A stretch of 64,000 bases of DNA, taken from the NCBI RefSeq assembly GCF_003933745.1, contig NZ_RSEB01000002.1, positions 496,001 through 560,000 of the forward strand, read 5' to 3'. The notes below the pieces were generated by a model. That model was not told the DNA's origin. It saw nothing but the letters and a program-made list of their open reading frames with translations, and ran no database searches. Made by a program: the position numbers and the translations under genes. Below are positions 6,697-51,866 of the stretch, in pieces (the first letter of the stretch is position 1; each line of letters begins with the position of its first letter). This stretch comes from Glycomyces terrestris (lineage in GTDB: Bacteria > Actinomycetota > Actinomycetes > Mycobacteriales > Micromonosporaceae).

Positions 6697-6768
6697 TCCC
6701 GTGCGGCCATCGACCCCATCGCGCCCGGACGCCGCGTTCCTGTCGGTCCCGGCGGATAGCCTCGCACC

Positions 6769-7914
6769 ATGCAGCTCACGACCCGGCGGCTGAATCGCGC
6801 CACCCTCGACCGCCAGTCGCTCCTGCGCCGGGCCGACATCGACGTGGTCGCCGCCGTCCGCGGCGCGGTCGCCCTTCAGTCCCAGACGCCGGTGTCGCCG
6901 TACATCGGCCTGTGGAACCGCGTCGCGGACTTCGACCCCGCCGACCTCGACGCCGCCTACGCCGACGGCCGCCTCCTGCGCGGCAACCCCGTCCGCATGA
7001 CCCTCCACACCGTCGCCGCCGCCGAGTACCGCACCTTCCGCGAGGCCACCGACCCGTCCCTGTACGCCGCCAAGCTCGGCGGCCGCATCGCCTCGGCCGG
7101 CCTCTCCGGCGCCGAGGCGTTCGCGCTCACCGAAGCGCTCATGGACGCCCTCTTCGCGCACGGCGAGGTCCGCACCGCCCGCGAATGCGAGGCCTGGCTC
7201 GCCGAGCGCCTCGACCCCGACACCGCCAAGCAGGTCTGGCCCGGCATCCGCCAGTACGCGCCGCTCCTGCGCGCCCCGAACGGCGGCCCGTGGGGCTTCG
7301 CCGACACCGTCGCCTACACCGCCCTCCCGGACCCGCCGGCCCTGCGCGACCAGGACGCCGCCGACCGCGCCCTCGCCGCGCTCGTCCTGCGCCACATCGA
7401 AGGCTTCGGGCCCGTGAGCATCGCCGACGTCGCCCAGTTCGCGATGGTCCAGCGCGGCCGCGTCAAGCAGGCGATCGCCGGCCTCGACCTCGTCGTCCAC
7501 GAGGGCCCGAACGGCGAAGTCCTCCACGACCTTCCCGGCGCGACCCTCCCCGACGAGGACGTGCCGGCCCCGCCGCGGCTGATGGCCATGTGGGACAACG
7601 TGTTCCTCGCCTTCCATGACCGCGCCCGCACCGTCCCGCCCGACTACCGGACCACGCTCATCCGCAACAACGGCGACGTCCTCCCGATCCTCTTCGTCGA
7701 CGGCTTCGCCGCGGGCGTCTGGCGCACCGTCGAAGGCGGCGTGGAGGCCACCGCCTTCCACCCGCTCCCCGACGACGCCTGGGACGCCCTCGCCGCCGAA
7801 GCGAAGGGCCTCACCGCGCTGCTCGCCGGCCGCGAACCCGACGTGTACCGCCGCCACCGCCACTGGTGGGACAAGCTCCCCGACCACGAGACCGTCCTCC
7901 TCTCCGGAGCATGA
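6769..7914 (+). CDS. Winged-helix DNA-binding protein of the AlkZ-like (HTH_42) family
   Basis: A protein of 381 residues covering the tandem winged-helix fold of the HTH_42 superfamily. It starts with RRLNRATLD and carries ALQSQTP near residue 37. The Q-x-Q element (Gln37, Gln39) matches the catalytic motif of AlkZ, the glycosylase that unhooks interstrand crosslinks. The following LWNRV and RMTLH segments are also typical. Most actinobacterial homologues are uncharacterised; some protect against genotoxic natural products. No antibiotic biosynthesis genes are adjacent, so a housekeeping repair role is equally possible. The ATG follows only a weak ribosome binding site. Confidence 0.8.
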   Translation: MQLTTRRLNRATLDRQSLLRRADIDVVAAVRGAVALQSQTPVSPYIGLWNRVADFDPADLDAAYADGRLLRGNPVRMTLHTVAAAEYRTFREATDPSLYAAKLGGRIASAGLSGAEAFALTEALMDALFAHGEVRTARECEAWLAERLDPDTAKQVWPGIRQYAPLLRAPNGGPWGFADTVAYTALPDPPALRDQDAADRALAALVLRHIEGFGPVSIADVAQFAMVQRGRVKQAIAGLDLVVHEGPNGEVLHDLPGATLPDEDVPAPPRLMAMWDNVFLAFHDRARTVPPDYRTTLIRNNGDVLPILFVDGFAAGVWRTVEGGVEATAFHPLPDDAWDALAAEAKGLTALLAGREPDVYRRHRHWWDKLPDHETVLLSGA

Positions 7915-33509: not shown

Positions 33510-33576
33510 GTTGCGCTCCAAGCGGAGTGATTGCAGGTGTGAGGGAGGGACGCACCGGCTGGGGTGCGCCCCGGGC

Positions 33577-33701
33577 GGCGGCTCTGGTCAGCCGCCGTTC
33601 GAGCGGTCAGGCGGTCGCGGCGGGTCGCCGCGGCCGGTGGGACCCGTCGGCGGCCGAGGCCGTGTCCGGCCCTCGGCCGCTGACGCGGCCCCGCCTCCTC
33701 G
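33577..33701 (-). terminator. Inter-operonic hairpins between the two GH43 genes
   Basis: CGGCCGAGGCC / GGCCCTCGGCCG near 33651-33679 and GGCGGCT / AGCCGCC at 33577-33596 lie after the endo-arabinanase stop. They could terminate or attenuate transcription into the downstream GH43 gene. Confidence 0.45.
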
Positions 33702-34766
33702 TCAACTGCCGTTGAGCACGGGCCAGCCCGCCGAATTCCATTCGATCCGCTCGATGTCGAGCGTGAAGCCGCCGTTCGAGCCGTATGCGTGATAGGAGAT
33801 CAGTCCCCTGTGGATGGACTGCCCGCCGGAGGCGACGTTGCTCCCATACGCGCCCAGGACGACCGTGCCGCCGCCGTTGCGCATGTCGACGCCGTTCGCG
33901 TCGAGGAACGGCCCGGTCGGCGAGGTGGAGCGGCCGACGGTGATCTTGTAGGTGGAGTTCGCCCCCGCGCAGCAGGTGCCGATCGAGGTGAACAGGTAGT
34001 AGTAGTTCCCGCGCTTCGTCATCGACGGCCCTTCGATGCCGCCGCTCTTGGTGGCGAGGCGGATCGGGACGGCCCCCGCGGCCGGCTTGCCGGAGGGCCA
34101 GTCGAGTTTGAGGATGTGGATGCCCTGCCACCAGGAGCCGAAGACCATCCAGTGGACGCCGGCGTCGTCGACGACGATGTTCGGGTCGATGGCGTTGTAG
34201 GCGTTGCCTTCGTACGACTGGAAGACCGGGCCCCGGTCGGTCCAGCCGTAGCCGGGGGCGGCCGGGTCGAGCGTCGGGCTGGTGGCGAGGCCGATCGCCG
34301 AGCGCTGCGACCCGAACGTCGAGGCCGAGTAGTAGAGGTAGTAGAGGCCCTGCGCGGCGTCGTAGTGGATCTCGGGCGCCCACAGGTTCGAGACGCCGGG
34401 GATCTGCTGGGTGATCCAGGCGGGCTTGGCGTTCCAGATGGTGCCGAGGCTCGACCAGGTCTGGCCTCCGTCGGTGGAGCGGCGGATCGGGATGGTCCCG
34501 CCGCCGAACCGGGCGTCGCCGGTGGCGAACACGTACCACGGCTGGCCGGAGCACCCGGCCCACAGCGCGGGGTCGTGCGCGCCGAGGCTGCCGCGGATCG
34601 AGCCCGGCTGCGCGGGCGCGCACTCCTGCTGGGCGGTGATCTCTGCGCCGGCGTCGGCGGTGACGAGCATGAACGTGGCGGCGGTCGTCAGCGCCGCCAC
34701 GAGCACGGCGAGGGCGGTCGTCAGGCGCCGCCTCGGGCCGGTGCGGTCTGCGGTCTCGGTGGTCAT
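33702..34766 (-). CDS. Secreted GH43 endo-1,5-alpha-L-arabinanase
   Basis: A protein of 354 residues. A long basic N terminus and hydrophobic helix (about 14-40) form a signal peptide. The single-domain GH43 propeller carries base Asp65 (GAHDPALW), Asp194 (AIDPNIV) and acid Glu245 (GGIEGPSM), matching endo-arabinanases in motif and length. NLWAPEIHYD is also typical. It cuts internal alpha-1,5 bonds of plant arabinan outside the cell. AGAAGGAG precedes the ATG. Operator-like palindromes lie upstream. Confidence 0.9.
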   Translation of the reverse strand: MTTETADRTGPRRRLTTALAVLVAALTTAATFMLVTADAGAEITAQQECAPAQPGSIRGSLGAHDPALWAGCSGQPWYVFATGDARFGGGTIPIRRSTDGGQTWSSLGTIWNAKPAWITQQIPGVSNLWAPEIHYDAAQGLYYLYYSASTFGSQRSAIGLATSPTLDPAAPGYGWTDRGPVFQSYEGNAYNAIDPNIVVDDAGVHWMVFGSWWQGIHILKLDWPSGKPAAGAVPIRLATKSGGIEGPSMTKRGNYYYLFTSIGTCCAGANSTYKITVGRSTSPTGPFLDANGVDMRNGGGTVVLGAYGSNVASGGQSIHRGLISYHAYGSNGGFTLDIERIEWNSAGWPVLNGS

Positions 34767-36958: not shown

Positions 36959-37795
36959 TCAGATCAGGCGGAACCGCTGGCCCGCGTCACCCGAGTCGCA
37001 GCTGTTGGTCGCCAAGGGCTGCCCGTGGTCGTTCCAGCGGCCGTCGAGGATGCCCATGCACAGCCCGGACGAGCTGGTCGCGATCGAGTAGAGGCCGTCG
37101 CCCAGCGGTTCGAGCTCCCAGAACTGGGTCTCGGTGAACTCGCACCCGTACGCGGCCATGAGATAGCCCTCCTGGTCGGCCGGCGCGTCGGCGCCCATGC
37201 AGGCGCTCCAGTCGGGGAAGTGCATGTTGAACACGTACACGCCCTCGTCCCAGGCGACGACCTGGAGCGTGTCGGGATTCGGGGCGTCGCAGTGGGCCAG
37301 CACGACGACCGTGCGGCCCTCGTTGCCCGGCTCCGGCCCGGTGCTCAGGCACAGGCCGCTCGCCTCCTGCTGCACCCGGTACCAGCCGTCGGCCGGATAG
37401 TCCGGTTCCGGTTCGGGCGCTTCGGACTCGCGCTCCTCGGCGGTGTCCGCGGGCGGGTCCGCCTCTTCGCTCGCCGACTCGGAGGGCGACGGGGACGGGC
37501 TCGGTGAGGGCGAGGGGGAGGCCGGGGGCGACACGGGCGCGGACGGCGAGGCGCTCGCGGTCGCGTCGTTCGCCGCGGCCTCCGGTTCGTCGCCGCCGGT
37601 GGCCGCCATGACGGCCGAGATCACGGCGATGGTGAGCACGAGCGCCACCACGGCGGCGACGCCGGCCATGGTCTGGCTGGTGCCCAAGCGCATCCGGGCG
37701 CGTTCGAGGAACTCGCGGAGGCGCGCGGGCAGGTCGTTCGGCGAGTGGTGACGGTGCCGGGGTCCGTGCGGAGTGGAGGGCGGCCTGGGTTCCAC
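36959..37795 (-). CDS. Membrane-anchored ricin-type lectin protein (ESX locus), paralogue 2
   Basis: A protein of 278 residues. A basic cytoplasmic N terminus of about 40 residues, one transmembrane helix (about 43-66), a Ser/Pro/Glu linker (about 70-130, including SPSPSPSPSPS) and an extracellular trefoil (about 135-278) with GLCLSTGPEPGNEGRTVVV and a final GQRFRLI. Paired Cys (GLC...AHC, SAC...YGC, GLC...NSC) fit three disulfide-stabilised subdomains. GTG start with GAAGGACC. It is the last gene of the minus-strand ESX-associated operon and 25 bp from its paralogue. It could bind cell-wall glycans near the secretion machine (inference). Confidence 0.75.
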   Translation of the reverse strand: MEPRPPSTPHGPRHRHHSPNDLPARLREFLERARMRLGTSQTMAGVAAVVALVLTIAVISAVMAATGGDEPEAAANDATASASPSAPVSPPASPSPSPSPSPSPSESASEEADPPADTAEERESEAPEPEPDYPADGWYRVQQEASGLCLSTGPEPGNEGRTVVVLAHCDAPNPDTLQVVAWDEGVYVFNMHFPDWSACMGADAPADQEGYLMAAYGCEFTETQFWELEPLGDGLYSIATSSSGLCMGILDGRWNDHGQPLATNSCDSGDAGQRFRLI

Positions 37796-37820
37796 GGAGG
37801 GGTCCTTCGGAGACGGTCGT

Positions 37821-38537
37821 TCAGGGGACCAGCAGCGCGAAGCGCTGGTGCGGGTCTGCGTCGTCGCAGTCGGTGGTGCCGATCGCTTCTCCCGCCACGC
37901 CTTCGGCCTGCCACAGCAGGCTCAGGCACAGGCCGGTCGCGGTCACCGCGACGGCGTAGGTGTCGTCGCCGCGCTCGGTGAGCTGGAAGCGCTGGAGGTC
38001 GTCGTCCGCGCACTCGTATGCGGCCGTGAGATAGCCGTCGCCGTCGCCGGGCGCGTCCACGCCGAGGCAGGCGCTCCAGTCCGGGAGCTCCATGCCGACG
38101 GTGTAGACGCCGGCGCCCTGCGCGGCGAACGCGAAGGCCGCCGGCTCGGTGGCGGCGCAGTCGCCGATGACGACGACGGTGCGCGTCTCGTTGCCGATCT
38201 CCGGACCGAGGGTCAGGCAGAGCCCGGTGGACTCCTGCCGGACCAGGTACGCCCCGTCGGCGGGCAGCGCCGGCGCGTGCTCTCCGGGCGCGGCCTCGGG
38301 TGCCGTCCCGGATTCCGTTGCGGCCGAAGCACTCGCGTCGTCACCGGCCTGCGGGGCGGGGCCGCCGCCGGAGGCGATGACGGCGGCGACGATCGCCACG
38401 AGGAGGACCACCGCGACGACGGCCGCGGTGGCCGCGACGGCGCGGTTCGCGCCGATGCGGTCGCGCATGCCCGTCAGCGCGTCCTGGATCCGGTCGGGCA
38501 GGTCCCGCTGGGGCGGGCGCGGATCGGTCTGGGTCAC
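37821..38537 (-). CDS. Membrane-anchored ricin-type lectin protein (ESX locus), paralogue 1
   Basis: A protein of 238 residues with the same plan as its downstream neighbour: cytoplasmic segment, one transmembrane helix (about 34-56), short linker and trefoil (about 90-238). GLCLTLGPEIGNETRTVVV, DWSACLGVDAPG and HQRFALLVP align with the paralogue, so this pair arose by tandem duplication. Cys pairs are conserved. GTG start. It is positioned 44 bp after the large putative ESX substrate gene in the same operon, which ties the lectins to type VII secretion. Confidence 0.75.
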   Translation of the reverse strand: MTQTDPRPPQRDLPDRIQDALTGMRDRIGANRAVAATAAVVAVVLLVAIVAAVIASGGGPAPQAGDDASASAATESGTAPEAAPGEHAPALPADGAYLVRQESTGLCLTLGPEIGNETRTVVVIGDCAATEPAAFAFAAQGAGVYTVGMELPDWSACLGVDAPGDGDGYLTAAYECADDDLQRFQLTERGDDTYAVAVTATGLCLSLLWQAEGVAGEAIGTTDCDDADPHQRFALLVP

Positions 38538-38581
38538 AGTGGAGGTTTCCTAGCTCGGGGGAGGGGCGGGGACCGGCCGGA

Positions 38582-41053
38582 TCACTGGTCTTTGCGCTGG
38601 TCGTCAAAGGTGCTGAGGTACGTCTTGAGCTTGTCGCTCAGCTTGTCTCCGAACAGGCGGTGCAGCTCCTCGGTGGCGAGGCGGTGGTCCAGGTTCTTGT
38701 CGACGCTGCCCTTGACCGGGGGCTCGTTGGCGGCCAGGATCTCCTCGACCGGGCGGAGCCTGCCGCCCTCGACCAGCCGCGGGTCGGCCTTCTGGACGTC
38801 GGCGATCGTGATCCCCGAGTCGGGGTCCTTGAGCGCCTGCTGCACGACCGCGTGGTTGACGGCGAGATCCCACTGCTCCTTGCTGCGGTCCCAGGTCTGC
38901 TTGTAGTCGGCGGGGTCGGGGGTGACGCCCTTGTCCCAGATGAAGTCGTGCGACTGGGCGACGCCGGGCGTCCACTTGAAGAACTCGGTGAGCTGCCGGA
39001 CCCCCTGCTGCCCCAGCCGTCCGAGGGACCTGGTCCCCGGGAGTTCGAGGATGAGCTCCTTCGCGGCGGCGGCGCCGGCCCGCGACCAGTTGGAGTGCTG
39101 GGTGGCGAGCGCGGTGGCGCGGTCGGCGTCGGTCTGCGCCTCCGTGAAGACCTTGTTGAACCCGTGGTCGAGCAGGCCCATGAGCATGCCCGACTCGTTC
39201 GCCTGCGACTGGGCCTCCTCGGGGTCCTTCCAGCCGTCGGCGTAGGCGGCCTCGGCGAGGGCGTGCGCGTACGCGGCCTGGCCGAACTTCTCGCCGGCAT
39301 CGGGGCTGCCCATGATCATCTCGATGAAGTTCCGCCGGGTGTCCATGGACAGGTACATCTGCGAGGCCGGGTTGCCGAAGGTCGCCTGGTCGTCCCCGCC
39401 GTTGTCGGCGGCGCTGAAGTAGTCGAGGTACGCCGCGGCGGTCTTGCCCATGGCGAAGGCGATCTCGGGGTTGGCCTGGCCGATCGGGGCGTTCTCGAAG
39501 CTCCCGATCTTCCCGTAGGAGTCGGTGAAGAAGTCGTACGCCGACTGGTCCCAGTGGCTCGCGGGCTTCTCGTTGGTCATGGTCGTGAACAGGGCGTAAG
39601 CGGACTCGACGGCGCGGTCGCGTACGGCGGGGTCCTTCGAGGACGCGTCGTCGCCGATCCAGTCGATGAGGCCGGACGCGGCCTTCCCGTCGTCCTTCCA
39701 CTGAGGACCGAACAGGCCGCGGAGCACGTGCTCGGGGCTGTCCTTGCCGTAGTCGGGGTGCTGGAGCACCCCGGTGAGCAGGGCCGCGTTCGCGTCCCGG
39801 CTGCGGGTGGAGACCTCGAGGACGTCGAGCAGCCGGTCCTCGGAGCCGATCCGGAACGAGGAGTCCGCGTCGGCGACCGCGAGCGTCAGCGCGGCCGAGT
39901 ATTCCCTGCCGCCTTCGAGGTCGTCGAGGCCGCGGCCCTTCATGGCGCTGAAGAACTCGCCGAGGCCGCGCAGTTCGGCGGCGGTCTCGCGCGAGTACGG
40001 CGGCCGGTCGCCGGTGCCGAAGAAGTGGTCCACGAGGGTCTTCATCGACTGCGGCATGCGGGAGCCGCCGCCGCCGATCCGCGGGTCGGACAGGGCGAGG
40101 AGGCCGCCGCCCATGGCCGCCATGATGAGCGCCCGGTCCGCTTCCGGTGTCTTGGAGCCGTCGAGGATGTCCGGGATCAGGTAGAGCACGCTGGTCTGGA
40201 TCGGGTTCTGCGCGGTCCAGGGCTGGTCCATGCCCTTGAAGAACTGCTCCAGGAAGTCGAGCTGCCCGGTGGTGAGCGTGCCGCCGTCCTGCTGCTTGTC
40301 GCGGGCCTCGCCCGCGAGCGCCAGGAGCGCTTCGAGCATCTTGCGCTTGTCGGCGGGGAGCGCCTCGTCCTCGTTGATGAACTCGCGCAGCCACTCCGCG
40401 AACGCCTTGCCGTCCGCGCCGGTGAGCGGGGGCACCCCGGCCGCCGCCCCGAAGAGGTTGAACATCGCCCAGGTGCCGCCGCCCCCGGCCGCGAGGGACT
40501 TGAGGTTCGCGGGGGTCGGGCCGGCCTTGAGGCGGGACCCGGCGGTCTTCGCGTCCCGCTTGTACTGCTCGTACGCCGCGTTGACGATCCCCTGGAAGTT
40601 CGCGAGGGCCCCGGCGCCGGCGTCGGCGATGGCGTTGTCCATGACCTTGGACTGCACGTCGCCGGGCATCCCGGCGGTGACCCCGGCGGACTCGGCGGTG
40701 ACGCCGAAGTCGTTCGCGACCTGCTCGGCCCACAGGCCCTGGTACTTCGCGGCGAGCTTCTGGTAGGTCTCGGCGTCGTCGGCCCAGCGGCCGGTGACGG
40801 TGCTGCCCCACACCGAGCCCTGCATGGCCTTGCGGGCGGCCTCGATCGACTCGGCGCCGCGGCGGCGCAGCGGCTCGGCGACGAGTTCGGAGAACTCGAC
40901 GGCGGTGGAGTTCATCTGCTCCATGACGTCGGCGCCGCGCCCGATGATGCTGCCGGACTTGGCGTCCAGCTCGGTCGCGAGTTCGCGGAGGGTGTCCACG
41001 ACGGCGTTGGAGACCGGGATGTTCAGGCTGCCCAGGGTGGGAATGCTCGGCAT
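38582..41053 (-). CDS. Large ESX-associated protein, putative type VII substrate
   Basis: A protein of 823 residues, acidic and almost wholly helical, without signal peptide or membrane helix. The first 130 residues form long amphipathic helices like a WXG100 module (LRELATELDAKSGSIIGRG, then WADDAETYQKLAAKYQGLWA). The remainder is helical repeats (LLDVLEVSTRSRDANAALLT, ALFTTMTNEKPASHWDQSAY, MGKTAAAYLDYF), reminiscent of TPR-region proteins (DUF6571-like) encoded beside actinobacterial ESX genes. No toxin motif is recognised at the C terminus. GAAGGAGAA precedes the ATG. It lies 22 bp after an EspC-like gene, a pairing typical of co-secreted partners. Confidence 0.72.
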   Translation of the reverse strand: MPSIPTLGSLNIPVSNAVVDTLRELATELDAKSGSIIGRGADVMEQMNSTAVEFSELVAEPLRRRGAESIEAARKAMQGSVWGSTVTGRWADDAETYQKLAAKYQGLWAEQVANDFGVTAESAGVTAGMPGDVQSKVMDNAIADAGAGALANFQGIVNAAYEQYKRDAKTAGSRLKAGPTPANLKSLAAGGGGTWAMFNLFGAAAGVPPLTGADGKAFAEWLREFINEDEALPADKRKMLEALLALAGEARDKQQDGGTLTTGQLDFLEQFFKGMDQPWTAQNPIQTSVLYLIPDILDGSKTPEADRALIMAAMGGGLLALSDPRIGGGGSRMPQSMKTLVDHFFGTGDRPPYSRETAAELRGLGEFFSAMKGRGLDDLEGGREYSAALTLAVADADSSFRIGSEDRLLDVLEVSTRSRDANAALLTGVLQHPDYGKDSPEHVLRGLFGPQWKDDGKAASGLIDWIGDDASSKDPAVRDRAVESAYALFTTMTNEKPASHWDQSAYDFFTDSYGKIGSFENAPIGQANPEIAFAMGKTAAAYLDYFSAADNGGDDQATFGNPASQMYLSMDTRRNFIEMIMGSPDAGEKFGQAAYAHALAEAAYADGWKDPEEAQSQANESGMLMGLLDHGFNKVFTEAQTDADRATALATQHSNWSRAGAAAAKELILELPGTRSLGRLGQQGVRQLTEFFKWTPGVAQSHDFIWDKGVTPDPADYKQTWDRSKEQWDLAVNHAVVQQALKDPDSGITIADVQKADPRLVEGGRLRPVEEILAANEPPVKGSVDKNLDHRLATEELHRLFGDKLSDKLKTYLSTFDDQRKDQ

Positions 41054-41075
41054 GGGGGGTTCTCCTTCGAGCGGG

Positions 41076-41408
41076 TCAGACCGGTTTGATGCTCGGGGCG
41101 CTGGGCAGCGGCGCGTCGACGCTCTGGAGCCCGGCGTTGTCCGTGTCGGTGCCGACGCCCTCGCCGACGGTGGCGTGGGTGGTGCCGCCGACGCTGACGC
41201 CGTGGTCGGCGGTCTTGGCGAGGTCGGTCGACCAGGTGGCGCCGAACTCGTCGTAGCCCTCGACGACCTCGGGTTCGCCGGCGGCGGCGACGCACTGGTT
41301 GACGATGCCGAGGAGTTCGCCCTTCAGCGCTCCGAACCGGTCGGCGCTGTCGATCGTCAGTCCGCCTTTGGCGCTGGCCTGATCGGGATTCATGCCGACG
41401 TAGTCCAT
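41076..41408 (-). CDS. EspC-like ESX secretion-associated protein
   Basis: A protein of 110 residues starting MDYVGMNPDQASAKGG, with a helical first half and a flexible Gly/Thr-rich tail ending SAPSIKPV. Size, helical hairpin and the DEFGATWSTDL stretch fit the EspC/DUF2580-type small partners of ESX systems. The C-terminal A-x-x-IKP motif is also found in the plus-strand Esx-like protein at 41663 (MPAIKPINIGIA), which suggests a common export or recognition tag. GGAGGACC precedes the ATG; the longer frame from 41507 lacks this. First gene of the minus operon. Confidence 0.7.
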   Translation of the reverse strand: MDYVGMNPDQASAKGGLTIDSADRFGALKGELLGIVNQCVAAAGEPEVVEGYDEFGATWSTDLAKTADHGVSVGGTTHATVGEGVGTDTDNAGLQSVDAPLPSAPSIKPV

Positions 41409-41662
41409 CGGTCCTCCAGGGGGGTGCAGGCGCGGAATGCGGTCAGCGTATCGGGAAACCGTGAGGATCGGAAGAACTTCGGATGAACTGTCTCGCTTGC
41501 GCCCCAACGGAAGTGAAAGGAGGTGCAGAAGTCGCGCAACCGGTTCCCGAGGGTCCGGAGTGGTTCCGTCCGCTCTTTACTTCCGCTTCACGCCCGTGTC
41601 AACATGTACCGATACGCTCCCCAGCACGGGCCATTCGCATCCTGCTCAAAGGAGGAACCCCC
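41409..41662. promoter_or_regulatory. Divergent promoter region of the ESX locus
   Basis: 254 bp between the two ESX operons, the natural control point for both. An A/T-containing stretch at 41600-41625 (GTCAACATGTACCGATACG) ahead of the plus operon is the best promoter candidate. The plus-side ribosome binding site AAAGGAGGAAC is close to ideal. No clear operator palindrome was seen. Confidence 0.45.
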
Positions 41663-42010
41663 ATGGCCGGAAACGAATTCGGTCTCACTGAGGCCAATGC
41701 GCTCAACGTCAGCGCCAACGACCACTCCGTCTCCGTCGAAGAGCTCTTCGGTCAGCTCCAGTCCCTCATCCAGGAGATGGAGAACGACGTCAACGCCCAG
41801 GGCGGCAACGCGCTCACCGCCTTCCGCACCGCCAAGGCCGAGTTCGTGACCGCGTACAACGCCCTCGCCGACAAGTACGGCGTCAGCGCCATGACCCAGG
41901 GCTCCACCAGCACCGAGGGCTTCACCACCGACGACGCCAACGAGGCCGGCTTCGCCGCCGTCCCCGGCGCCATGCCCGCCATCAAGCCGATCAACATCGG
42001 CATCGCCTAG
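41663..42010 (+). CDS. WXG100/Esx-like secreted protein (without Trp-x-Gly)
   Basis: A protein of 115 residues of the size and helix-turn-helix shape of Esx proteins. Helix 1 is VSVEELFGQLQSLIQEMEND and helix 2 is ALTAFRTAKAEFVTAYNALA. The turn reads NDVNAQGGNAL, so the Trp-x-Gly is replaced by Gln-Gly-Gly, as in one partner of some Esx heterodimers. The tail ends MPAIKPINIGIA. It is followed 15 bp later by the WXG-containing partner, so the two likely form the exported heterodimer. Confidence 0.82.
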   Translation: MAGNEFGLTEANALNVSANDHSVSVEELFGQLQSLIQEMENDVNAQGGNALTAFRTAKAEFVTAYNALADKYGVSAMTQGSTSTEGFTTDDANEAGFAAVPGAMPAIKPINIGIA

Positions 42011-42025
42011 AAGGGAGCGTCCACA

Positions 42026-42328
42026 ATGCCTGGACAAGGATACGAACTGTACGGCAACGTCGGCGAGCTCGAGAACCTCGCGGGCGTCCAGCACACCTAC
42101 CGCGGCCGCTTCGAGGCCATCCTCGGCCAGATCCAGGGCGCCGTCGGCACCGTCACCCCCAAGTGGACCGGCGCCGGCCTCGACGGCTTCACCACCTTCA
42201 ACCAGACCAGCGAGACCGAGTTCACCGACGTGCAGGCCGCGTTCAACAAGCTCGCGACCGCCACCGAGGACGCCGGATCCAACTGGAACGGCTCCATCGC
42301 CCGCATCAACGGAATGTGGGGCGCTTGA
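42026..42328 (+). CDS. WXG100 family protein (Esx partner)
   Basis: A protein of 100 residues, the canonical length. Helix 1 (ENLAGVQHTYRGRFEAILGQ) ends at PKWTGAGLDGF, which holds the Trp-x-Gly turn, and helix 2 (ETEFTDVQAAFNKLATATED) follows. These small proteins leave the cell as dimers through the EccC-powered channel and often carry the C-terminal signal. GAAGGGAG precedes the ATG. Its stop overlaps the TTG start of the next gene. Confidence 0.88.
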   Translation: MPGQGYELYGNVGELENLAGVQHTYRGRFEAILGQIQGAVGTVTPKWTGAGLDGFTTFNQTSETEFTDVQAAFNKLATATEDAGSNWNGSIARINGMWGA

Positions 42329-42660
42329 CCGAGCCCCAGGCGCAGTCCAAGCCGGCCGAGGCCGGCGCCGACCTCGCGCCCCTGGTCATGCGGCGCACCG
42401 GCCAGAGCGAGCGCTACGTGCTCCAAGCCGCCGCGCTCCGCCGCCGCCAGCTCCGCGCCGCCGTCCTCTACGGCTCGGCGCGAAGCTGGCGGCAGCGCCA
42501 ACCCCTGTGGCCCGCCGCGCTCATCGGCGTGATCGCGGTGGCCCTCATCGTCGCCGCGATCGCCGTCGCCGGCGCCTTCGAGAAGCAGCGGCAGCGCGAG
42601 GCCGAGGAAGAGGCCGAGCGCGAAGCCACCGTATCCGCCCCGTACGCCAGCCCGGACTGA
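42325..42660 (+). CDS. Small single-span membrane protein of the ESX operon
   Basis: A protein of 111 residues. The first 57 residues are basic and cytoplasmic (QSERYVLQAAALRRRQLRAA). One transmembrane helix (about 58-80; LWPAALIGVIAVALIVAAIA) is followed by a charged helix (EKQRQREAEEEAEREA). The TTG at 42325 overlaps the preceding stop (TTGA), giving tight coupling; the ATG at about 42388 is the alternative. It is too short to be EccB or EccE. It may be a local assembly factor; function unknown. Confidence 0.7.
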   Translation: MTEPQAQSKPAEAGADLAPLVMRRTGQSERYVLQAAALRRRQLRAAVLYGSARSWRQRQPLWPAALIGVIAVALIVAAIAVAGAFEKQRQREAEEEAEREATVSAPYASPD

Positions 42661-42671
42661 GAAGGCCCACC

Positions 42672-44003
42672 TTGCCCGGTCGATACAGCACCGTCACCGT
42701 CGTCGGCCCCCGCGCCACCCGCGACCTGGCGCTCCCCGACGACCTGCCCGTCGCCGAACTCCTCCCGCAGCTGCTGCGGCACACCGGACCCGACGAGCCG
42801 GAGGCGGACGGCACCGGCTGGGCGCTGTCCACCATGGACGGCACGACGTTCGCGCCCGGCGGGACCCTCGCCGAGGCCGGCGTCCCCGACGGCGGCGTGC
42901 TCCTCCTCCACGACGCCACCGCCGCCGCCCTCCCCGGCACCGTCGAGGACGTCCGCGACGCCGTCGAGGACGCGATCGACGCCGGCGGCGCCCGCTGGGA
43001 GTCCGGCACCGGCCGCCTCCTCGCCGTCGCCACCGCCGGGCTCCTCGTCGCCGCCGCCGCGTTCAGCCCCGGCGCCGACTCCGCCGTCCTCCTCACCGGC
43101 GGCCTCGTCTGCCTCCTCGCCGTCCTCATGTCCTGGTGGTCCGCCCGCCAGCACGACCTCATGACCCACCTCGCCCTCACCGGCGGCGCCCTGTGGGCCG
43201 GCCGCGTCGGCCACACCGCCGTCGAGGTCCTCGCCGCCGACGGCGCGGCCCACCAGTCCACGCGCATGATCGGCGCCGGCATCGCCGCCCTCGCGTTCGT
43301 CGTCGTCGCCCGCGCCGGCGCCCGCCTCGCCACCGCCTACGCCGTCGGCATCGCCGCCGTCCTCGCCCTCGGCGCCCTCGCCTGGGCCCTGTGGGCCCGC
43401 CTCGGCCTCTCGGCCGTCCGCGCCGAGACCCTCGTCCTCTTCATCGCGCTCTTCGCGATCGCCCTCGTGCCCCGCCTCGCGATGTCCTCCGCCGGGCTCT
43501 TCGCCCTCGACCGCGACGTCCGCGCCGGCGAGCCCACGAGCGACGAGCACCTCGCCCGCCGCCTCCAGGCCACCGACGCCCGCCTCACCGGCGCCGTCTG
43601 CGGCCTCGCCGCCACCGCCGGCGCGGCCTCGGCCCTCCTTGCGGCCCAACCCGACCCGTGGGCCTCCCTCATGGGCGCGGGCGGCGCGCTGGCGCTCCTG
43701 ACCCGTTCCCGGATCTTCGAGCTCGTCCGCCACGTCGCCCCGCTGCGCCTCGCCGGCATGGCCGCGCTCGCGTGGTCGGCATGGCTGTGGATCGGCCACT
43801 CCGCGCCGCTCCTCGCCTGGCTGCCCGCGCTCGCGGTCCTCGCCGGACTCGCGTACGTCTCGGTCGCCTCCATCTCGCGCTCGGCGGTCTCGGCCGCGTG
43901 GTGGCGGCGCGTGGTCGCCGTCGCCGAGACCCTCCTCGTCGCGGGCATGATCACCCTCGCCGGGCACCTGTCGGGCCTGTACGCGATGATCGGCGGCATC
44001 TGA
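42672..44003 (+). CDS. eccD: EccD-like type VII secretion membrane protein
   Basis: A protein of 443 residues. An N-terminal ubiquitin-like (YukD) domain of about 90 residues (YSTVTVVGPRATRDLALPDD, GTTFAPGGTLAEAGVPDGG) precedes a linker and about ten to eleven hydrophobic helices from residue 117 on. This is the architecture of EccD, which forms the membrane barrel of ESX channels. TTG start, with GAGAAGG upstream. It stands directly before EccC with one base between stop and start. Confidence 0.85.
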   Translation: MPGRYSTVTVVGPRATRDLALPDDLPVAELLPQLLRHTGPDEPEADGTGWALSTMDGTTFAPGGTLAEAGVPDGGVLLLHDATAAALPGTVEDVRDAVEDAIDAGGARWESGTGRLLAVATAGLLVAAAAFSPGADSAVLLTGGLVCLLAVLMSWWSARQHDLMTHLALTGGALWAGRVGHTAVEVLAADGAAHQSTRMIGAGIAALAFVVVARAGARLATAYAVGIAAVLALGALAWALWARLGLSAVRAETLVLFIALFAIALVPRLAMSSAGLFALDRDVRAGEPTSDEHLARRLQATDARLTGAVCGLAATAGAASALLAAQPDPWASLMGAGGALALLTRSRIFELVRHVAPLRLAGMAALAWSAWLWIGHSAPLLAWLPALAVLAGLAYVSVASISRSAVSAAWWRRVVAVAETLLVAGMITLAGHLSGLYAMIGGI

Positions 44004-44004
44004 C

Positions 44005-47000
44005 ATGGGGACCGCCGTCGTCCGCCGCCCGGCCCGGCGCCCCGCCCCCGAGGTCTCCACCGAGCCGATCACGCTCGCCTCGCCGCCGGCCCTGGGCGAC
44101 CCGCCCTCGGCGGTCATGGGCGCGCCGATGCTCATGATGCCGCTCATGTCCGGCTCGGGCGCGATGGTCATGGTCCTGTCGAACCTCGAACGGCCCCTGT
44201 ACGCGACGGCGGGCCTGCTCATGCTCGTCGCCAGCGTCGCCATGGGCGTCGTCCTGTTCGCCGCCATGCGGTCCGGGCCGCGCCGCAAGCTCCGGCAGGA
44301 GCGCGAGCGGTACCTCGACTACCTCGAGGACGCCCGGCACACCATCCGCGAGGCCGTCAAGGCCCAGCGCGACCACGCCGCCCGCCGCCACCCGCACCCC
44401 GGGCTGCTCCTCGGCCTCGCGTGCGACCCGGGCCGCCGCTGGGAGCGGCGCAACACCGACCCCGACCTGCTGCACGTCAGGTGCGGCCTCGCGTCGGTGC
44501 CGCTGAGCCGGGCCCTGTCGCTCAAGATCGACGAGCAGAGCCCGCTCGTCGTCTACGACCCCGTATGCCATTCGGGCGCAGAGGAACTCGTCGACCAGTA
44601 CGCGAACCTCGCCGACCAGCCGCTCACCCTCGCCGTCGGCGAGGTCGGCGAGACCGCGATCATCGGCGAGTTCGCGCGCACCCGCGCCACCGCGCAGGCG
44701 ATGCTCGCCCAGCTCGCGGTCCTCGTCGCCCCCGAGGACCTGCGGATCGCGATCGTCGCCCACCCCACGGTCGCTCCCCAGTGGACGAAGCTGTCGTGGC
44801 TGCCGCACCTCCTCGCCGACCCCACCGCCGCCGAGGCCCCCGTCCCGCTCATCGCCCCGACCACCGCCGAACTCGCCGAGCTCCTCGCCGACGACCTCGC
44901 GGTGCGCGCCGGGGAGCTGCGCCGCCGCCGCGGCGGCCCGCCCGGCCCCGGCACCCGGCGCCTCCTCGTCGTCGTCGACGGCGAGCACCAGGTGTCCCTG
45001 CCCGGCGTCCTCCCCGACACGAGCGCGAACGAACTCCTCGGCGTGCACGTCTGGACCCTCGTCGCCGAGCAGCGCCAGGAGCCCGAGCACACCGCCGCGC
45101 GCATCGCCGTGGACGCCGACCAGATCGCGGTGACCCGCATCGAACGCGCCGACGGCGCCGTCGCCGAGACCACCCGCACCGGCCGCCCCGACCGCCTCGA
45201 CCCCGCCGACCTGGCCGCGATCGCCCGCGCCGTCAGCCCCTGGCGGCTCGCCCTCGACGACGTCTCGCACGCGCTCTCCGGCGTCCACGGCCTCGCCGAC
45301 ATCCTCGGCGTCGCCGATCCGGCCGAAGTGGACTGGCGCCGCACCTGGGCCCCGCGCGAGGAGTCCGCGCTCCTGCGCGTCCCCTTCGCCGTGGACGCCG
45401 ACGGCCGCCCCGTCGAGCTCGACCTCAAGGAGTCCGCGCTCGGCGGCATGGGCCCGCACGGACTCATCGTGGGCGCCACCGGCTCCGGCAAGTCCGAGGC
45501 GCTGCGCACCCTCGTGGCGGCGCTCGCGGTGCGCCACTCCCCGGAGCGGCTCGCGCTGCTCACCGTCGACTTCAAGGGCGGCGCCACGTTCGCCGACTGC
45601 GACGACCTGCCGCACAGCGCCGGCGCGATCACGAACCTCGCCGACGACCTCGGGCTCGTGGACCGCTTCGCCGAGGCCCTGTACGGCGAGATGGCCCGCC
45701 GCCAGCAGATCCTCAAGGACGCCGGGAACCTCCCGAACGTGCACGCCTACGCGCGGCTGCGCGAGGCGCGCCGCGCCGAGGGGCAGCCCGACCTGGAGCC
45801 CCTGCCGCACCTGCTCGTCATCATCGACGAGTTCTCCGAGCTGCTCACCGCCAAGCCCGACTTCTCGGACCTGTTCGTCGCGGTCGGCCGCATCGGCCGC
45901 TCCATCGGCGTGCACCTGCTCCTCGCGACCCAGCGCCTCGAGGCCGCGCACCTGCGCGGCCTCGAATCGCACCTGTCCTACCGGATCGGCCTGCGCACCT
46001 TCTCCGAAGCGGAGAGCCGCGAGGCGATCGGCGTCCCCGACGCCTACCGGCTCCCGCCCGAACCCGGCTCCGGCTACCTCAAAGTGGACACCACGATCTT
46101 CACGAGGTTCAAGGCCGCCATGGTCTCCGGCAAGTACACGCCGCCGCGCGAAGTCGAGCAGCGGAGCCTGCCGGTGCTGCCGTGGCCGGTGCCGCCGGTC
46201 GTGAACGTCCTCGACGCGCTCGTCAACTCCGCGGCCCTGCGACCCGGCGGCGAGCAGCCCGACCCCGAGCACTCCGTGCTCCGCGTCCTCGTCGCCTCCC
46301 TCGCCCGCGCCGCCCAGACCGACGGCATCCCGAACGTCCGTCCAGTGTGGCTCCCGCCGCTGCCGGAGTCCCTGCCGCTCTCCGCCCTCGACACCGACCC
46401 GGCCGAGCCCGGCGCCGGCCTGCGCGCCGTCCTCGGCCTCGCCGACCACCCGCGCGAGCAGCGCCAGGACGCCCTCGAATGGGACCTCGCCGGCGCGGAC
46501 GCGAACCTCGCCGTCCTCGGCGCGCCCACCTCCGGCAAGTCCACGCTCGTGCGCACCCTCGTCTCCGGCCTCGCCCTGCGCTACCCGCCGACCGCGTTCG
46601 CCGCCTACGTCATCGACTACGGCGGCGGCGCCCTCGGCGGCCTCGGCCGCCTCCCGCACGTCGCCGTCGCCGCCGGCCGCGCCGAGCCCGAACTCGTCGC
46701 CCGCACCCTCGCCGAAGTCCGGTCCCTCCTCGACGCCCGCGAGCACCTCATGCGCGCCAAGGGCATCGACTCAGCCGCCGGGCTCCGCCGGGCCGCCGCC
46801 GCAGGCACGGTCGACGTCCCCGGCGACGTCCTCCTCGCCATCGACGGCTGGGGCGGCCTCACCGAGGCCAAAGAGGACGCCAACGACCTCCTCATGGAGA
46901 TCGCCTCCCGCGGGCCCGCGCTCGGCGTCCACACCGTGCTCACCGCCGTGAACTCCGCGCAGATCCGCGCCCGCCTCGCCGCCGCGATCTCCGGCCGCAT

Positions 47001-47985
47001 CGAGCTGCGCCTCGCCGACGCCTTCGACTCCGGCATCGACCGCAAGCTCATCGAGGAGCTCCCCAAAGAGGTCCCCGGCCGGGTCCTCAACGCCGACAAG
47101 CACTTCGGGCACATCGCACTCCCGCGCGTCGACGGCTCCGGCGACACCGCCGACCTCGCCGACGGCTTCGCCGACCTCGTCGACGCCGTGCGCCGCCGCT
47201 GGCCCGGCCCCGGCGTCGCCGCCGTCAAGGCCCTCCCGGCCGACGTCGCCCTGAGCGAACTCGTGCCGCCCCTCCCCGCCCCGGCCCCCGGCGACCCGTT
47301 CGCGCTCGCGCCCGTCGTCGGCGTCGCCGAGAGCGACCTGCGGCCCGCCGCGATCGACTTCACCGCCGACCCGCACCTGGTCGTCTTCGGCGACACGCAG
47401 ACCGGCAAGACCACGCTCCTGCGCGCCATCATGCGCCAGATCGTGCGCCGCCCCAGCGACGAGGCCGGCATCTTCCTCGTGGACTACCGGCGCTCGCACC
47501 TCGAAGAGGTCCCCGAGGACCACCTCGTCACCTACTGCAACACCGGCCCGCACGCCGCCCAGAACGCCTTCGAGCTCGCCGAGGCCCTGAAGAAGCGCCT
47601 GCCCGGACCCGACGTCACCCCGCAGCAGCTGCGCGACCGCTCCTGGTGGACCGGCCCCGAGGTGTTCGTCGTCGTCGACGACTACGACCTCGTCCCCACC
47701 TCCGCCGGGAACCCCCTCGCGCCCCTCACCGAACTCGCCGCCCACGGCGCCGACCTCGGCCTCCACCTGATCCTCGCCCGCCGCACCGGCGGCGCGAGCC
47801 GCGCCGTCTACGAGCCCCTGCTGCGCCAGCTCTGCGACATGTCCAGCCCCGGCCTCCTCTTCTCCGGCGACCGCCTCGAGGGCCGGCTGATCAACGGCAC
47901 CGCCAGCCGCCAGCTCCCACCCGGCCGCGCCCTCCTCACCCGCCGCGGCCAGAACCCCGACCTCCTCCAGATCGCCAGGCCCTGA
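44005..47985 (+). CDS. eccC: EccC-type FtsK/SpoIIIE ATPase, three fused ATPase domains
   Basis: A protein of 1326 residues, the motor of the type VII secretion system. Two N-terminal membrane helices (about 38-95) and a DUF-type stalk precede three ATPase domains. Walker A motifs are at 490-497 (GATGSGKS), 839-846 (GAPTSGKS) and 1129-1136 (GDTQTGKT). The first Walker B (LVIIDEF, Asp608-Glu609) is complete. The second (LLAIDGW) lacks the Glu and the third (VVVDDYD) has Asp, matching other EccC proteins in which domain 1 is the main catalyst and domains 2 and 3 bind substrate. It is one polypeptide, unlike the split EccCa/EccCb of ESX-1. The gene ends 5 bp from the convergent Mth938-like gene. 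Confidence 0.95.
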   Translation: MGTAVVRRPARRPAPEVSTEPITLASPPALGDPPSAVMGAPMLMMPLMSGSGAMVMVLSNLERPLYATAGLLMLVASVAMGVVLFAAMRSGPRRKLRQERERYLDYLEDARHTIREAVKAQRDHAARRHPHPGLLLGLACDPGRRWERRNTDPDLLHVRCGLASVPLSRALSLKIDEQSPLVVYDPVCHSGAEELVDQYANLADQPLTLAVGEVGETAIIGEFARTRATAQAMLAQLAVLVAPEDLRIAIVAHPTVAPQWTKLSWLPHLLADPTAAEAPVPLIAPTTAELAELLADDLAVRAGELRRRRGGPPGPGTRRLLVVVDGEHQVSLPGVLPDTSANELLGVHVWTLVAEQRQEPEHTAARIAVDADQIAVTRIERADGAVAETTRTGRPDRLDPADLAAIARAVSPWRLALDDVSHALSGVHGLADILGVADPAEVDWRRTWAPREESALLRVPFAVDADGRPVELDLKESALGGMGPHGLIVGATGSGKSEALRTLVAALAVRHSPERLALLTVDFKGGATFADCDDLPHSAGAITNLADDLGLVDRFAEALYGEMARRQQILKDAGNLPNVHAYARLREARRAEGQPDLEPLPHLLVIIDEFSELLTAKPDFSDLFVAVGRIGRSIGVHLLLATQRLEAAHLRGLESHLSYRIGLRTFSEAESREAIGVPDAYRLPPEPGSGYLKVDTTIFTRFKAAMVSGKYTPPREVEQRSLPVLPWPVPPVVNVLDALVNSAALRPGGEQPDPEHSVLRVLVASLARAAQTDGIPNVRPVWLPPLPESLPLSALDTDPAEPGAGLRAVLGLADHPREQRQDALEWDLAGADANLAVLGAPTSGKSTLVRTLVSGLALRYPPTAFAAYVIDYGGGALGGLGRLPHVAVAAGRAEPELVARTLAEVRSLLDAREHLMRAKGIDSAAGLRRAAAAGTVDVPGDVLLAIDGWGGLTEAKEDANDLLMEIASRGPALGVHTVLTAVNSAQIRARLAAAISGRIELRLADAFDSGIDRKLIEELPKEVPGRVLNADKHFGHIALPRVDGSGDTADLADGFADLVDAVRRRWPGPGVAAVKALPADVALSELVPPLPAPAPGDPFALAPVVGVAESDLRPAAIDFTADPHLVVFGDTQTGKTTLLRAIMRQIVRRPSDEAGIFLVDYRRSHLEEVPEDHLVTYCNTGPHAAQNAFELAEALKKRLPGPDVTPQQLRDRSWWTGPEVFVVVDDYDLVPTSAGNPLAPLTELAAHGADLGLHLILARRTGGASRAVYEPLLRQLCDMSSPGLLFSGDRLEGRLINGTASRQLPPGRALLTRRGQNPDLLQIARP

Positions 47986-50432: not shown

Positions 50433-51866
50433 GTGGACGCGCTCTGGTCGATCGTCCCCGACATCGCGATCCCTGTCGGCTTCACCCTCCTCCACGCGTA
50501 CCTGTGGCTGCGGCTGTGCCGCGACTCGACCCGCCCCGGCTCGCGGTGGCGCCCGGCCGGCGCGGTCGTCCTCGGCGTCCTGGGCGCGACCGGGATGCTC
50601 GCCTGGTTCCTCACGCCCTCGACGTACGCGCCGATGTGGCTCCAACAGCAGGTCGGCTGGCCGGGCTGGATCTGGTTCGGTGTCCTGATGTACCTGGGCG
50701 GCATCCTGGTCCTGGCGGAGCCCTTGCGGTGGTTCCTGTTGCGGCGCAAGGAGGGCGGGGCATCATCGTCGGAGTCGGAGTCGGAGTCGGAGTCGGAGTC
50801 GGAGTCGGAGTCGGAGTCGGAGTCGGAGTCGGAGTCGGGGTCGGGGTCGGGGTCGGATCGTGAACCTGAACCCGTAGCCGTAGCCGAGCCTGAGCCCGAA
50901 CTAGAGCCCGAGGTCAAACCAGAACCCGAGGCCAAACCAGAGCCCGAGGCCGAACTCGGCCCCAAACCCGAACCCTCATCCGATCGCCGCGACGCGGCCT
51001 CTCCCGGCAATGCCATGTCACACAGCACCGGCCTGACCCGCCGCGTAGTCGTCTCGCGGGCCATCGGCATCGGCGCGGCCGCCGCCGCCCTCGGCACCGT
51101 CGGCCACGGTCTGTACGAGGGCTACCGGACACCGCGCCTCAAGCCCGTCACGGTGCCGCTCGCCCGCCTCGACCGGGCCTTCGACGGCTACCGGATCGCG
51201 ATCGTCGGCGACACGCACTTCTCCGCGATCCGCGGCCGCGGCTACTGCGAGCGCGTCGTCGACCGGATCAACGGCACCCAGCCCGATCTCATCGCGTTCG
51301 TGGGGGACCTCGCGAGCAACGAGGCCGACCAGCTGCGCCGCGAGACCGAGCCGCTGTCGCGCTTGAGCGCCAGCGAGGGCGCGTTCTTCGTCGCCGGGAA
51401 CGCCGAGCACTATGTGGGCGCCGACGCCTGGTACGACCGCGTCGCGGAGCTCGGCATGACCGGCCTGCCGAACCGACGTGTCGAGCTGCCCGGCTTCGAC
51501 CTGGCCGGCGTCAACGACCTCATCGTGGAGCAGCGCGGCATGCAGGACACCGAGATCGGCCCGGATTTCGAAGCGGCCCTTGGCGACCGCGACCCGGCGC
51601 GCCCGGTGGTCCTGCTGGCGCACCAGCCCTCGGCCGTCGAGCGGATCGCCGGCTACGGCGTCGACCTCCAGCTCTCCGGCCACACCCACGGCGGCCAGAT
51701 CTGGCCCGTCCACTACCTCTCGCGCCTACGCAGCGGCCAGCTCGCGGGCCTGGAGACCCACGGCGACACCCAGGTCTACGTCACCAGTGGCGCCGGCACG
51801 AACGGCCCCCCGATCCGCGTGGGCGCCGACGCCGACATCACCGTGATGACGCTCCGCGCCGCCTGA
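50433..51866 (+). CDS. Membrane metallophosphoesterase with a Ser-Glu repeat linker
   Basis: A protein of 477 residues. Three hydrophobic helices (about 8-27, 42-62, 74-98) precede a low-complexity linker (about 110-190). The linker is a Ser-Glu run from a TCGGAG hexanucleotide, then Ser-Gly and Glu-Pro repeats. Residues 200-230 are a twin-arginine-like, hydrophobic segment (TRRVVVSRAIGIGAAAAAL). The YkuE-type phosphoesterase follows, with VGDTHFS, VGDLASN, HQPSA and GHTHGGQ. The fourth motif is GNAEHY, where relatives have GNHEYY, so a normally catalytic His is Ala. The substrate may be lipid-linked. It starts directly after the SDR stop. Confidence 0.87.
   Translation: MDALWSIVPDIAIPVGFTLLHAYLWLRLCRDSTRPGSRWRPAGAVVLGVLGATGMLAWFLTPSTYAPMWLQQQVGWPGWIWFGVLMYLGGILVLAEPLRWFLLRRKEGGASSSESESESESESESESESESESESGSGSGSDREPEPVAVAEPEPELEPEVKPEPEAKPEPEAELGPKPEPSSDRRDAASPGNAMSHSTGLTRRVVVSRAIGIGAAAAALGTVGHGLYEGYRTPRLKPVTVPLARLDRAFDGYRIAIVGDTHFSAIRGRGYCERVVDRINGTQPDLIAFVGDLASNEADQLRRETEPLSRLSASEGAFFVAGNAEHYVGADAWYDRVAELGMTGLPNRRVELPGFDLAGVNDLIVEQRGMQDTEIGPDFEAALGDRDPARPVVLLAHQPSAVERIAGYGVDLQLSGHTHGGQIWPVHYLSRLRSGQLAGLETHGDTQVYVTSGAGTNGPPIRVGADADITVMTLRAA
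50769..50852 (+). repeat. Hexanucleotide microsatellite inside the metallophosphoesterase gene
   Basis: Eleven perfect TCGGAG units followed by three TCGGGG units, read as (Ser-Glu)n then (Ser-Gly)n. Because the unit is six bases, slippage would change linker length without a frameshift. Confidence 0.95.

What the first reader, a model, noticed from the sequence alone, without database searches (positions are those of the whole stretch)
36959..47985. Compact type VII secretion locus with membrane lectins instead of EccB, EccE and mycosin
Two divergent operons hold EccC, EccD, two Esx proteins, a small membrane protein, an EspC-like protein, a large helical protein and two tandem single-span ricin-type lectins. 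EccB, EccE and MycP, usually linked, are not here. The lectins have the topology of EccB (short cytoplasmic tail, one helix, extracellular domain) but a sugar-binding fold. They might anchor the machine to wall glycans or replace a periplasmic part. The assignment of individual parts is solid; the joint role of the lectins is inference.
Basis: partly seen in the sequence, partly recalled or inferred. Interest (0 to 1): 0.72.

Follow-up and report, generated by a model that had tools for sequence, protein, structure and literature searches.

The report
Secretion machine with shortened EccB
This bacterial locus encodes a pared-down type VII protein secretion machine in which one core part appears cut down to its membrane anchor, and beside it sit membrane proteins that share one anchor but carry exchangeable sugar-binding or sugar-cutting heads.

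Summary
The locus (a Glycomyces; closest named EccC in G. artemisiae) encodes EccC, EccD, two Esx-type proteins, a 111-aa membrane protein, an EspA-like protein and two single-span ricin-type lectins; no full-length EccB, EccE or mycosin is linked. "Lectins instead of EccB" is not the best reading. The 111-aa protein is most likely EccB reduced to its N-terminal clamp helix plus transmembrane helix: its conserved core matches EccB N-termini (Prob 87.6; 0 of 300 permutations reach the score). The signal is short and partly weak: the whole protein gives Prob 14.5, and TIGR03919 does not match. EccC proteins beside such stubs form one clade (25 of 58 rows, SH-aLRT 97), inside an EccB-free clade (100). 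Two single-contig genomes carry EccC, EccD and a stub but no EccB and no EccE hit; mycosin is absent in one and far below cut-off in the other. So the type can probably work alone, although this genome also holds a complete ESX-type cluster elsewhere. The lectins are accessory: 8 of 9 Glycomyces loci have one, the same anchor also carries an alginate-lyase or an unknown head, and none was found at the more distant stub loci examined. Verdict: new variant of a known kind; secretion untested.

The parts
36959..37795 (-). single-span ricin-type lectin A: cytoplasmic tail, TM helix, Ser/Pro-rich linker, beta-trefoil
   Evidence: Pfam PF00652 34.8 bits over 29, PF14200 32.3 over 25.6; AlphaFold model and Foldseek
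37821..38537 (-). single-span ricin-type lectin B, paralogue of A (42% identical)
   Evidence: PF14200 33.4 bits over 25.6; PF00652 26.7 under 29
38582..41053 (-). EspA-like all-helical protein, 823 aa, candidate substrate
   Evidence: PF23275 TPR_23 44.3 bits over 27; model mean pLDDT 72.3, no PDB match at E<=0.001
41076..41408 (-). small conserved protein, EspC-like by size and position only, candidate co-substrate
   Evidence: found in 9 of 9 Glycomyces loci; no family hit
41409..41662 (.). spacer between the two divergent operons
41663..42010 (+). Esx-type protein 1
   Evidence: hhalign Prob 89.5 to WXG100 set; no WXG100 family hit
42026..42328 (+). Esx-type WXG100 protein 2 (WTG hinge)
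   Evidence: PF06013 20.0 bits under 27.3; hhalign Prob 96.6
42325..42660 (+). EccB stub (mini-EccB): N-terminal clamp helix plus TM, no periplasmic domain; TTG start overlapping the esx2 stop (read by eye)
   Evidence: core to EccB N-termini Prob 87.6, 0 of 300 permutations reach it; extended family Prob 92.7, seven divergent members 94.1; controls. Weak points: whole protein Prob 14.5, no TIGR03919 match
42672..44003 (+). EccD: ubiquitin-like domain plus polytopic membrane domain
   Evidence: TIGR03920 96.4 bits over 94.95; PF08817, PF19053
44005..47985 (+). EccC: membrane-anchored FtsK-type motor with three Walker A motifs
   Evidence: TIGR03924 738.5 and TIGR03925 701 bits; motifs

Best explanation
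The locus encodes a stripped-down actinobacterial T7SS. EccC is the motor and pore, EccD dimers are the membrane raft, and the small protein before eccD is EccB cut down to the part that in ESX-3 and ESX-5 lies under the membrane, couples neighbouring EccD barrels and surrounds the EccC helices. The dome-forming periplasmic part of EccB, which mycosin caps, is gone, and EccE and mycosin are not linked. It would secrete the Esx pair and probably the EspC-like/EspA-like pair into the wall space. The lectins are accessory surface proteins displayed on an anchor found almost only at this type of locus; they bind glycans and keep secreted proteins or the cell in contact with polysaccharide. Shown by computation: gene content, similarity of the stub core to the EccB N-terminus, the clade, no EccB or EccE hit in two single-contig genomes, head exchange on the anchor. 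Inferred: that it secretes, that the stub does what the EccB N-terminus does, and what the lectins do.
For: EccC and EccD pass curated cut-offs. Stub core (67 columns) against the N-termini of 30 EccBs: Prob 87.6, score 32.8; 300 column permutations within segments reach at most 27.0. Seven divergent stubs alone: Prob 94.1, P 1.3e-7. One sequence at a time, 19 of 22 stubs (near-copies included, one protein twice) score above all 99 unrelated anchor proteins (max 20.5). The EccB-N profile finds some stubs in small local gene sets: G054 7e-5, G776 3e-5, and G543 5e-5 in a six-frame set. A stub-profile search of 396 genomes gave weaker matches in 15 genomes besides the clear stubs; two of these, E 1.3e-5 and 9.5e-5, are the N-termini of full-length EccBs. 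EccC tree: all 25 stub rows on one side of a branch (97), joined at 100 by 5 EccB-less rows; 16 EccB rows all outside. G039 and G054, one contig each: EccB 0, EccE 0, mycosin none in G039 and one 88.8-bit subtilase in G054, yet EccC, EccD and stub are there. Structures give the EccB N-terminus this coupling role (PMC8131196, PMC6986878; passages). Anchor with swapped heads.
Against: No secretion data. The whole stub alignment gave only Prob 14.5 against EccB N-termini; Prob 87.6 came after I trimmed it to the conserved core. A profile of the window-type stubs alone gave EccBs E 0.08 at best, level with lectins and others. The window, G054 and G776 stubs do not match TIGR03919 at E<=1. 3 of 22 stubs (20.4, 20.0, 17.1) do not exceed the best control (20.5). 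In six-frame sets several stubs score only 0.0007-0.03 with the EccB-N profile, about the level also reached by places without T7SS genes (0.0018, 0.0028). Of the 15 weaker matches, 13 show no T7SS gene in the short loci, so the retrieval of two EccBs is modest evidence. All 12 genomes with window-type EccC also have another EccC and at least one EccB, so borrowing is not excluded for Glycomyces. In G040 two mycosin-like genes (250.8 and 248.1 bits, cut-off 278.75) sit beside the stub-type loci. Trees are quick searches without bootstrap; SH-aLRT for the stub clade was 86 before seven rows were added.
Confidence: 0.66

Rival explanations
1. The locus is an alternative motor and substrate set that borrows EccB, EccE and mycosin from the ESX cluster on contig C9.
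For: This genome has such a cluster; all 12 genomes with window-type EccC among the 61 searched also have another EccC and an EccB.
Against: Same-clade systems in G039 and G054 exist with no EccB and no EccE hit in the genome and no mycosin near cut-off. The locus has its own stub, present in 25 of 25 clade rows. Window and C9 EccC are only 40% identical.
Confidence: 0.14
2. As first proposed, the membrane lectins structurally replace the periplasmic part of EccB and sit in the machine.
For: Same topology as EccB; linked in 8 of 9 Glycomyces loci, and present in G028 (A. filicis) and, weakly, in G025; anchor found almost only at these loci.
Against: Lectin anchors score like unrelated anchors against the EccB N-terminus. 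Heads are swapped for alginate lyase or an unknown domain. Copy number runs from 0 to 3. No lectin was found at the more distant stub loci examined. Lectins of the family also occur in stretches of 15-16 kb where no T7SS gene was found (L113, L115, L116).
Confidence: 0.05
3. The small membrane protein is an unrelated anchor that resembles EccB by convergence (basic helix plus TM).
For: Not recognised by TIGR03919; whole-protein comparison weak (Prob 14.5); alignment of about 60 residues that include a TM; 13 of 15 weaker matches of the stub profile are probably chance.
Against: Permutation and background controls; divergent stubs match better than the window type does; two true EccBs among the weaker matches; one EccC clade that has stubs and no EccB.
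Confidence: 0.12
4. The locus is a decaying remnant of an ESX cluster.
For: EccB, EccE and mycosin are not linked; Glycomyces genomes carry it patchily (9 of 22).
Against: Frames are intact, Walker A motifs are kept, EccC is 73-91% identical in eight other Glycomyces; the order esx1-esx2-stub-eccD-eccC is kept in all nine Glycomyces loci.
Confidence: 0.03

Closest known systems
ESX / T7SSa of mycobacteria (ESX-3 PMC6986878, ESX-5 PMC8131196; passages read)
   Same: EccC motor with three Walker A motifs, EccD with ubiquitin-like domain, WXG100-type proteins, EspA-like protein
   Different: EccB reduced to its N-terminal helix and TM; EccE and mycosin not in the locus; accessory membrane lectins
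ESX-4-type systems
   Same: small gene set; EccE missing in some variants (PMC11217815, passage)
   Different: ESX-4 has EccB and MycP according to the same passage
T7SSc to T7SSj (PMC11217815; abstract, outline and passages read)
   Same: EccC/EssC-type ATPase with WXG100 proteins and variable partners
   Different: most of those subtypes are in Bacillota; the window's EccC passes the EccC models and the locus has EccD; in the passages seen no subtype with a shortened EccB is described
Ricin-type beta-trefoil lectins (CBM13 kind)
   Same: Pfam match and fold
   Different: displayed on a membrane anchor found almost only at these loci, exchangeable with PL7 alginate lyase

Membership tests
T7SSa (ESX) | EccC motor | tested here: met
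   TIGR03924 and TIGR03925 over cut-off; three Walker A motifs
T7SSa (ESX) | EccD with ubiquitin-like domain and polytopic membrane domain | tested here: met
   TIGR03920 96.4 over 94.95; PF08817 and PF19053
T7SSa (ESX) | WXG100 substrate pair | tested here: inconclusive
   below family cut-offs; profile comparison Prob 96.6 and 89.5
T7SSa (ESX) | full-length EccB at the locus | tested here: not met
   the genome's one EccB hit is on C9; only a 111-aa stub here
T7SSa (ESX) | EccE at the locus (missing in some ESX-4) | tested here: not met
   the one hit is at C9
T7SSa (ESX) | mycosin at the locus | tested here: not met
   nearest TIGR03921 hit on the contig is about 85 kb away
T7SSa (ESX) | secretes Esx proteins | not testable with these tools
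   needs experiment
EccB | N-terminal cytoplasmic helix plus single TM | tested here: met
   core profile comparison with controls; weak when untrimmed
EccB | periplasmic repeat domain | tested here: not met
   the protein ends about 26 residues after the TM; TIGR03919 not matched
Ricin-type lectin | beta-trefoil ricin B domain | tested here: met
Ricin-type lectin | sugar binding | not testable with these tools
   needs binding assay

The most novel reading that the evidence does not exclude
In this clade EccB has been split: its membrane clamp survives as a stub, while the extracytoplasmic side is handed to a modular set of anchored heads (ricin lectin, PL7 alginate lyase, others) that dock to the machine through their shared cytoplasmic tail and TM, so that Glycomyces runs a T7SS with exchangeable wall- or polysaccharide-facing tools and no mycosin-capped dome.
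Probability: 0.12. Interest if true: 0.85.

Novelty: new variant of a known kind. Interest (0 to 1): 0.62.

Why it matters
The role of EccB's membrane part versus its periplasmic dome, and the need for EccE and mycosin, are hard to separate in mycobacteria because the parts depend on each other. A natural lineage that appears to run EccC and EccD with only the EccB membrane clamp would give a minimal, non-pathogenic model to test what the core translocon is, and suggests that dome and mycosin cap are additions rather than basic needs. The exchangeable glycan-directed heads hint at what such systems do in actinomycetes outside the mycobacteria.

Tried and rejected
Lectins as EccB replacements: rejected by anchor scoring, head swapping and patchy presence.

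Dedicated mycosin elsewhere: a search with a G040 mycosin-like protein found nothing at E<=1e-45 in 20 of 22 Glycomyces genomes, the window's among them. The unlinked subtilase at C9:101632 (256 bits; gene list) was not pursued.

EspA-like fold search gave no PDB match at E<=0.001; the model is middling (pLDDT 72.3).

First stub comparisons were weak: whole-protein hhalign Prob 14.5, and the window-type profile gave EccBs E 0.08 at best, mixed with lectins. I then trimmed to the conserved core and added divergent relatives.

EccC places without EccB within 25 kb: 41 of 101 in 61 genomes, contig ends included. I fetched 18 of them beyond the window-type ones, plus two EccB-linked controls. One had a stub by gene call (G054) and one more by six-frame search (G039); that search left out two of the 18 (L215, L222). 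So several EccB-less kinds exist, for example seven loci of the same family with EccC, EccD and mycosin but no stub found (L217, L220, L221, L224-L226, L230).

Rows left out of trees: loci in which my gene caller gave no EccC over 1000 aa (among them stub loci G068, G166, G120 and G065); 30 loci, most as near-copies; 8 long or distant rows (L208, L263, L267, L269, L275, L276, L281, L295) and 7 (the same without L208). In the first tree of 59 rows the stub label needed two changes because G039 was then scored as lacking a stub; one search found it. L109 (G025) was relabelled by hand, because the gene caller missed its stub.

My gene caller is a codon-usage script trained on window genes; it missed genes in some drafts such as G068 and G166.

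Literature: six searches (listings only, apart from the three papers whose passages I read) showed no paper on T7SS-linked lectins or on a naturally shortened EccB; one listing with "truncated EccB" is a cloning study of M. tuberculosis EccB5 (PMC7133456, not opened). The library lacks most subscription journals.

Full report
WHAT IS THERE. Two divergent operons lie at 36959-47985. Rightward: an Esx-type protein, a WXG100-type protein, a 111-aa single-span protein, EccD, EccC, with gaps of 1-15 bases or an overlap. Leftward: a small EspC-like protein, an 823-aa EspA-like helical protein (Pfam TPR_23), two single-span ricin-type lectins. The host is a Glycomyces: the closest named EccC, 91% identical, is in G. 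artemisiae.

SECOND SYSTEM. The genome (5.24 Mb, 15 contigs, 99.46% complete) has one EccB hit, one EccE hit and one other EccC over the cut-off, together on contig C9 with an EccD homologue, two WXG100 proteins and two mycosin-like proteases. So EccB and EccE are encoded in the genome but not in the window locus.

THE SMALL MEMBRANE PROTEIN AS AN EccB STUB. It is the most widely kept small part: found at the loci of all 9 Glycomyces genomes that have window-type EccC (of 22 Glycomyces examined), at loci of two more genera of the family (G025, G028), and twice in G040. First comparisons were weak: the whole alignment gave Prob 14.5 against the N-termini of 30 EccBs, and a profile of it gave EccBs E 0.08 at best, among lectins and others. 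Trimmed to its conserved 67 columns it aligns, with a one-residue gap, to the clamp helix, basic stretch and TM of EccB: Prob 87.6, score 32.8, against a maximum of 27.0 in 300 within-segment column permutations. More distant relatives, found by a search of 397 genomes of the order (19 with a match at E<=0.001, several weak), match better: seven divergent ones alone give Prob 94.1, P 1.3e-7. Scored singly against the EccB N-terminal profile, 19 of 22 stubs (near-copies included, one protein counted twice) exceed all 99 unrelated N-terminal anchors (median 11.2, max 20.5); the window stub scores 27.5; 40 lectin anchors, many near-copies, reach 19.5 at most.

A search of 396 genomes across the phylum gave 22 genomes with a match: the window's own, six clear stubs beside EccD, and 15 weaker ones. 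Two of the 15 are the N-termini of full-length EccBs (E 1.3e-5 and 9.5e-5; 188.9 and 202.1 bits with TIGR03919, cut-off 154). The other 13 show no T7SS gene in the short loci held and are probably chance. In small local sets the EccB N-terminal profile finds stubs of G054, G776 and G543 at 3e-5 to 7e-5; in six-frame sets several stubs score 0.0007-0.03, no better than some places without T7SS genes. The window, G054 and G776 stubs do not match TIGR03919 at E<=1.

ONE CLADE. In an EccC tree of 58 rows all 25 stub-associated EccCs lie on one side of a branch (SH-aLRT 97), joined at 100 by five EccB-less rows without a detected stub; the 16 EccB-linked rows and 12 others lie outside (earlier trees; rows left out are listed under Tried and rejected).

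STAND-ALONE CASES. G039 and G054, single-contig genomes 99-100% complete, have EccC, EccD and a stub but no EccB hit and no EccE hit; G039 has no mycosin-like match at E<=1e-20 and G054 one subtilase at 88.8 bits against a cut-off of 278.75. This speaks against borrowing as a general rule. For Glycomyces itself borrowing stays possible, since all 12 genomes with window-type EccC also hold another EccC and an EccB. In G040 two mycosin-like genes lie beside the stub-type loci.

LECTINS. Of nine Glycomyces loci, six have two lectins; G. tenuis has one lectin plus a PL7 alginate lyase on the same anchor; Glycomyces sp. TRM65418 has one lectin; G. salinus has the anchor with an unknown head. Actinorhabdospora filicis (G028) has three lectin-like proteins, one over a Pfam cut-off, and two with sub-threshold Fn3 matches. 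G025 has one weak match. No lectin was found at the other stub loci examined, where gene calling was poor in some drafts. A profile of the shared anchor hits, among the genes called in the loci held, only proteins of these loci, the alginate lyase of an orphan cassette in the window genome on contig C10 (EspC-like, EspA-like, lectin and alginate-lyase genes side by side), and weakly one lectin elsewhere. Sequences used to build the profile match by construction. So the heads travel with the EspC/EspA cassette and are exchangeable.

MECHANISM. In ESX-5 the N-terminal loop and helix of EccB couple neighbouring EccD barrels and its TM helices form a basket around the EccC helices, while the periplasmic parts form a dome capped by mycosin (PMC8131196, passages). 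In ESX-3 the same N-terminal parts contact EccC and EccD, and the periplasmic parts help hold the dimer (PMC6986878, passages). The stub keeps just the first set. Loss of dome and cap would fit a cell without a mycomembrane; that Glycomyces lacks one is recalled, not tested.

STATUS. Shown by computation: content, similarity of the stub core to EccB, clade, absence of EccB and EccE hits in two genomes, head swap. Inferred: secretion, stub function, lectin role.

Noticed in passing
L227:9312-13658 and L228:9131-13483 (Glycomyces G015 and G012): EccC-like FtsK-type protein of about 1450 aa without a predicted TM; in L227 the N-terminus is a caspase domain (Peptidase_C14, 44 bits; L228 not scanned). 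Both group with the canonical Glycomyces EccC.
   Followed up: partly
L112:6788-11567 (window genome, contig C10): Orphan cassette of EspC-like, EspA-like, lectin, and an alginate lyase on the same anchor, with no EccC or EccD found in the 19 kb fetched.
   Followed up: partly
L114:7261-8940 (G004): Protein kinase fused to a ricin-type lectin domain, one gene apart from a canonical EccC.
   Followed up: partly
L217, L220, L221, L224, L225, L226, L230: Loci of the same family with EccC, EccD and mycosin but neither EccB nor a stub detected within the stretch: another EccB-less kind, outside the stub clade.
   Followed up: partly
window 32034-34766: Two glycosyl hydrolase family 43 enzymes next to the locus, one with its own ricin-type domain.
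   Followed up: partly
L337:2694-3342 and 6756-7405 (G627): Two WXG100 genes that appear twice, with the same lengths and the same first 40 residues, within one ESX cluster.
   Followed up: no
window 50433-51866: A protein with a long Ser-Glu repeat stretch before its C-terminal half.
   Followed up: no
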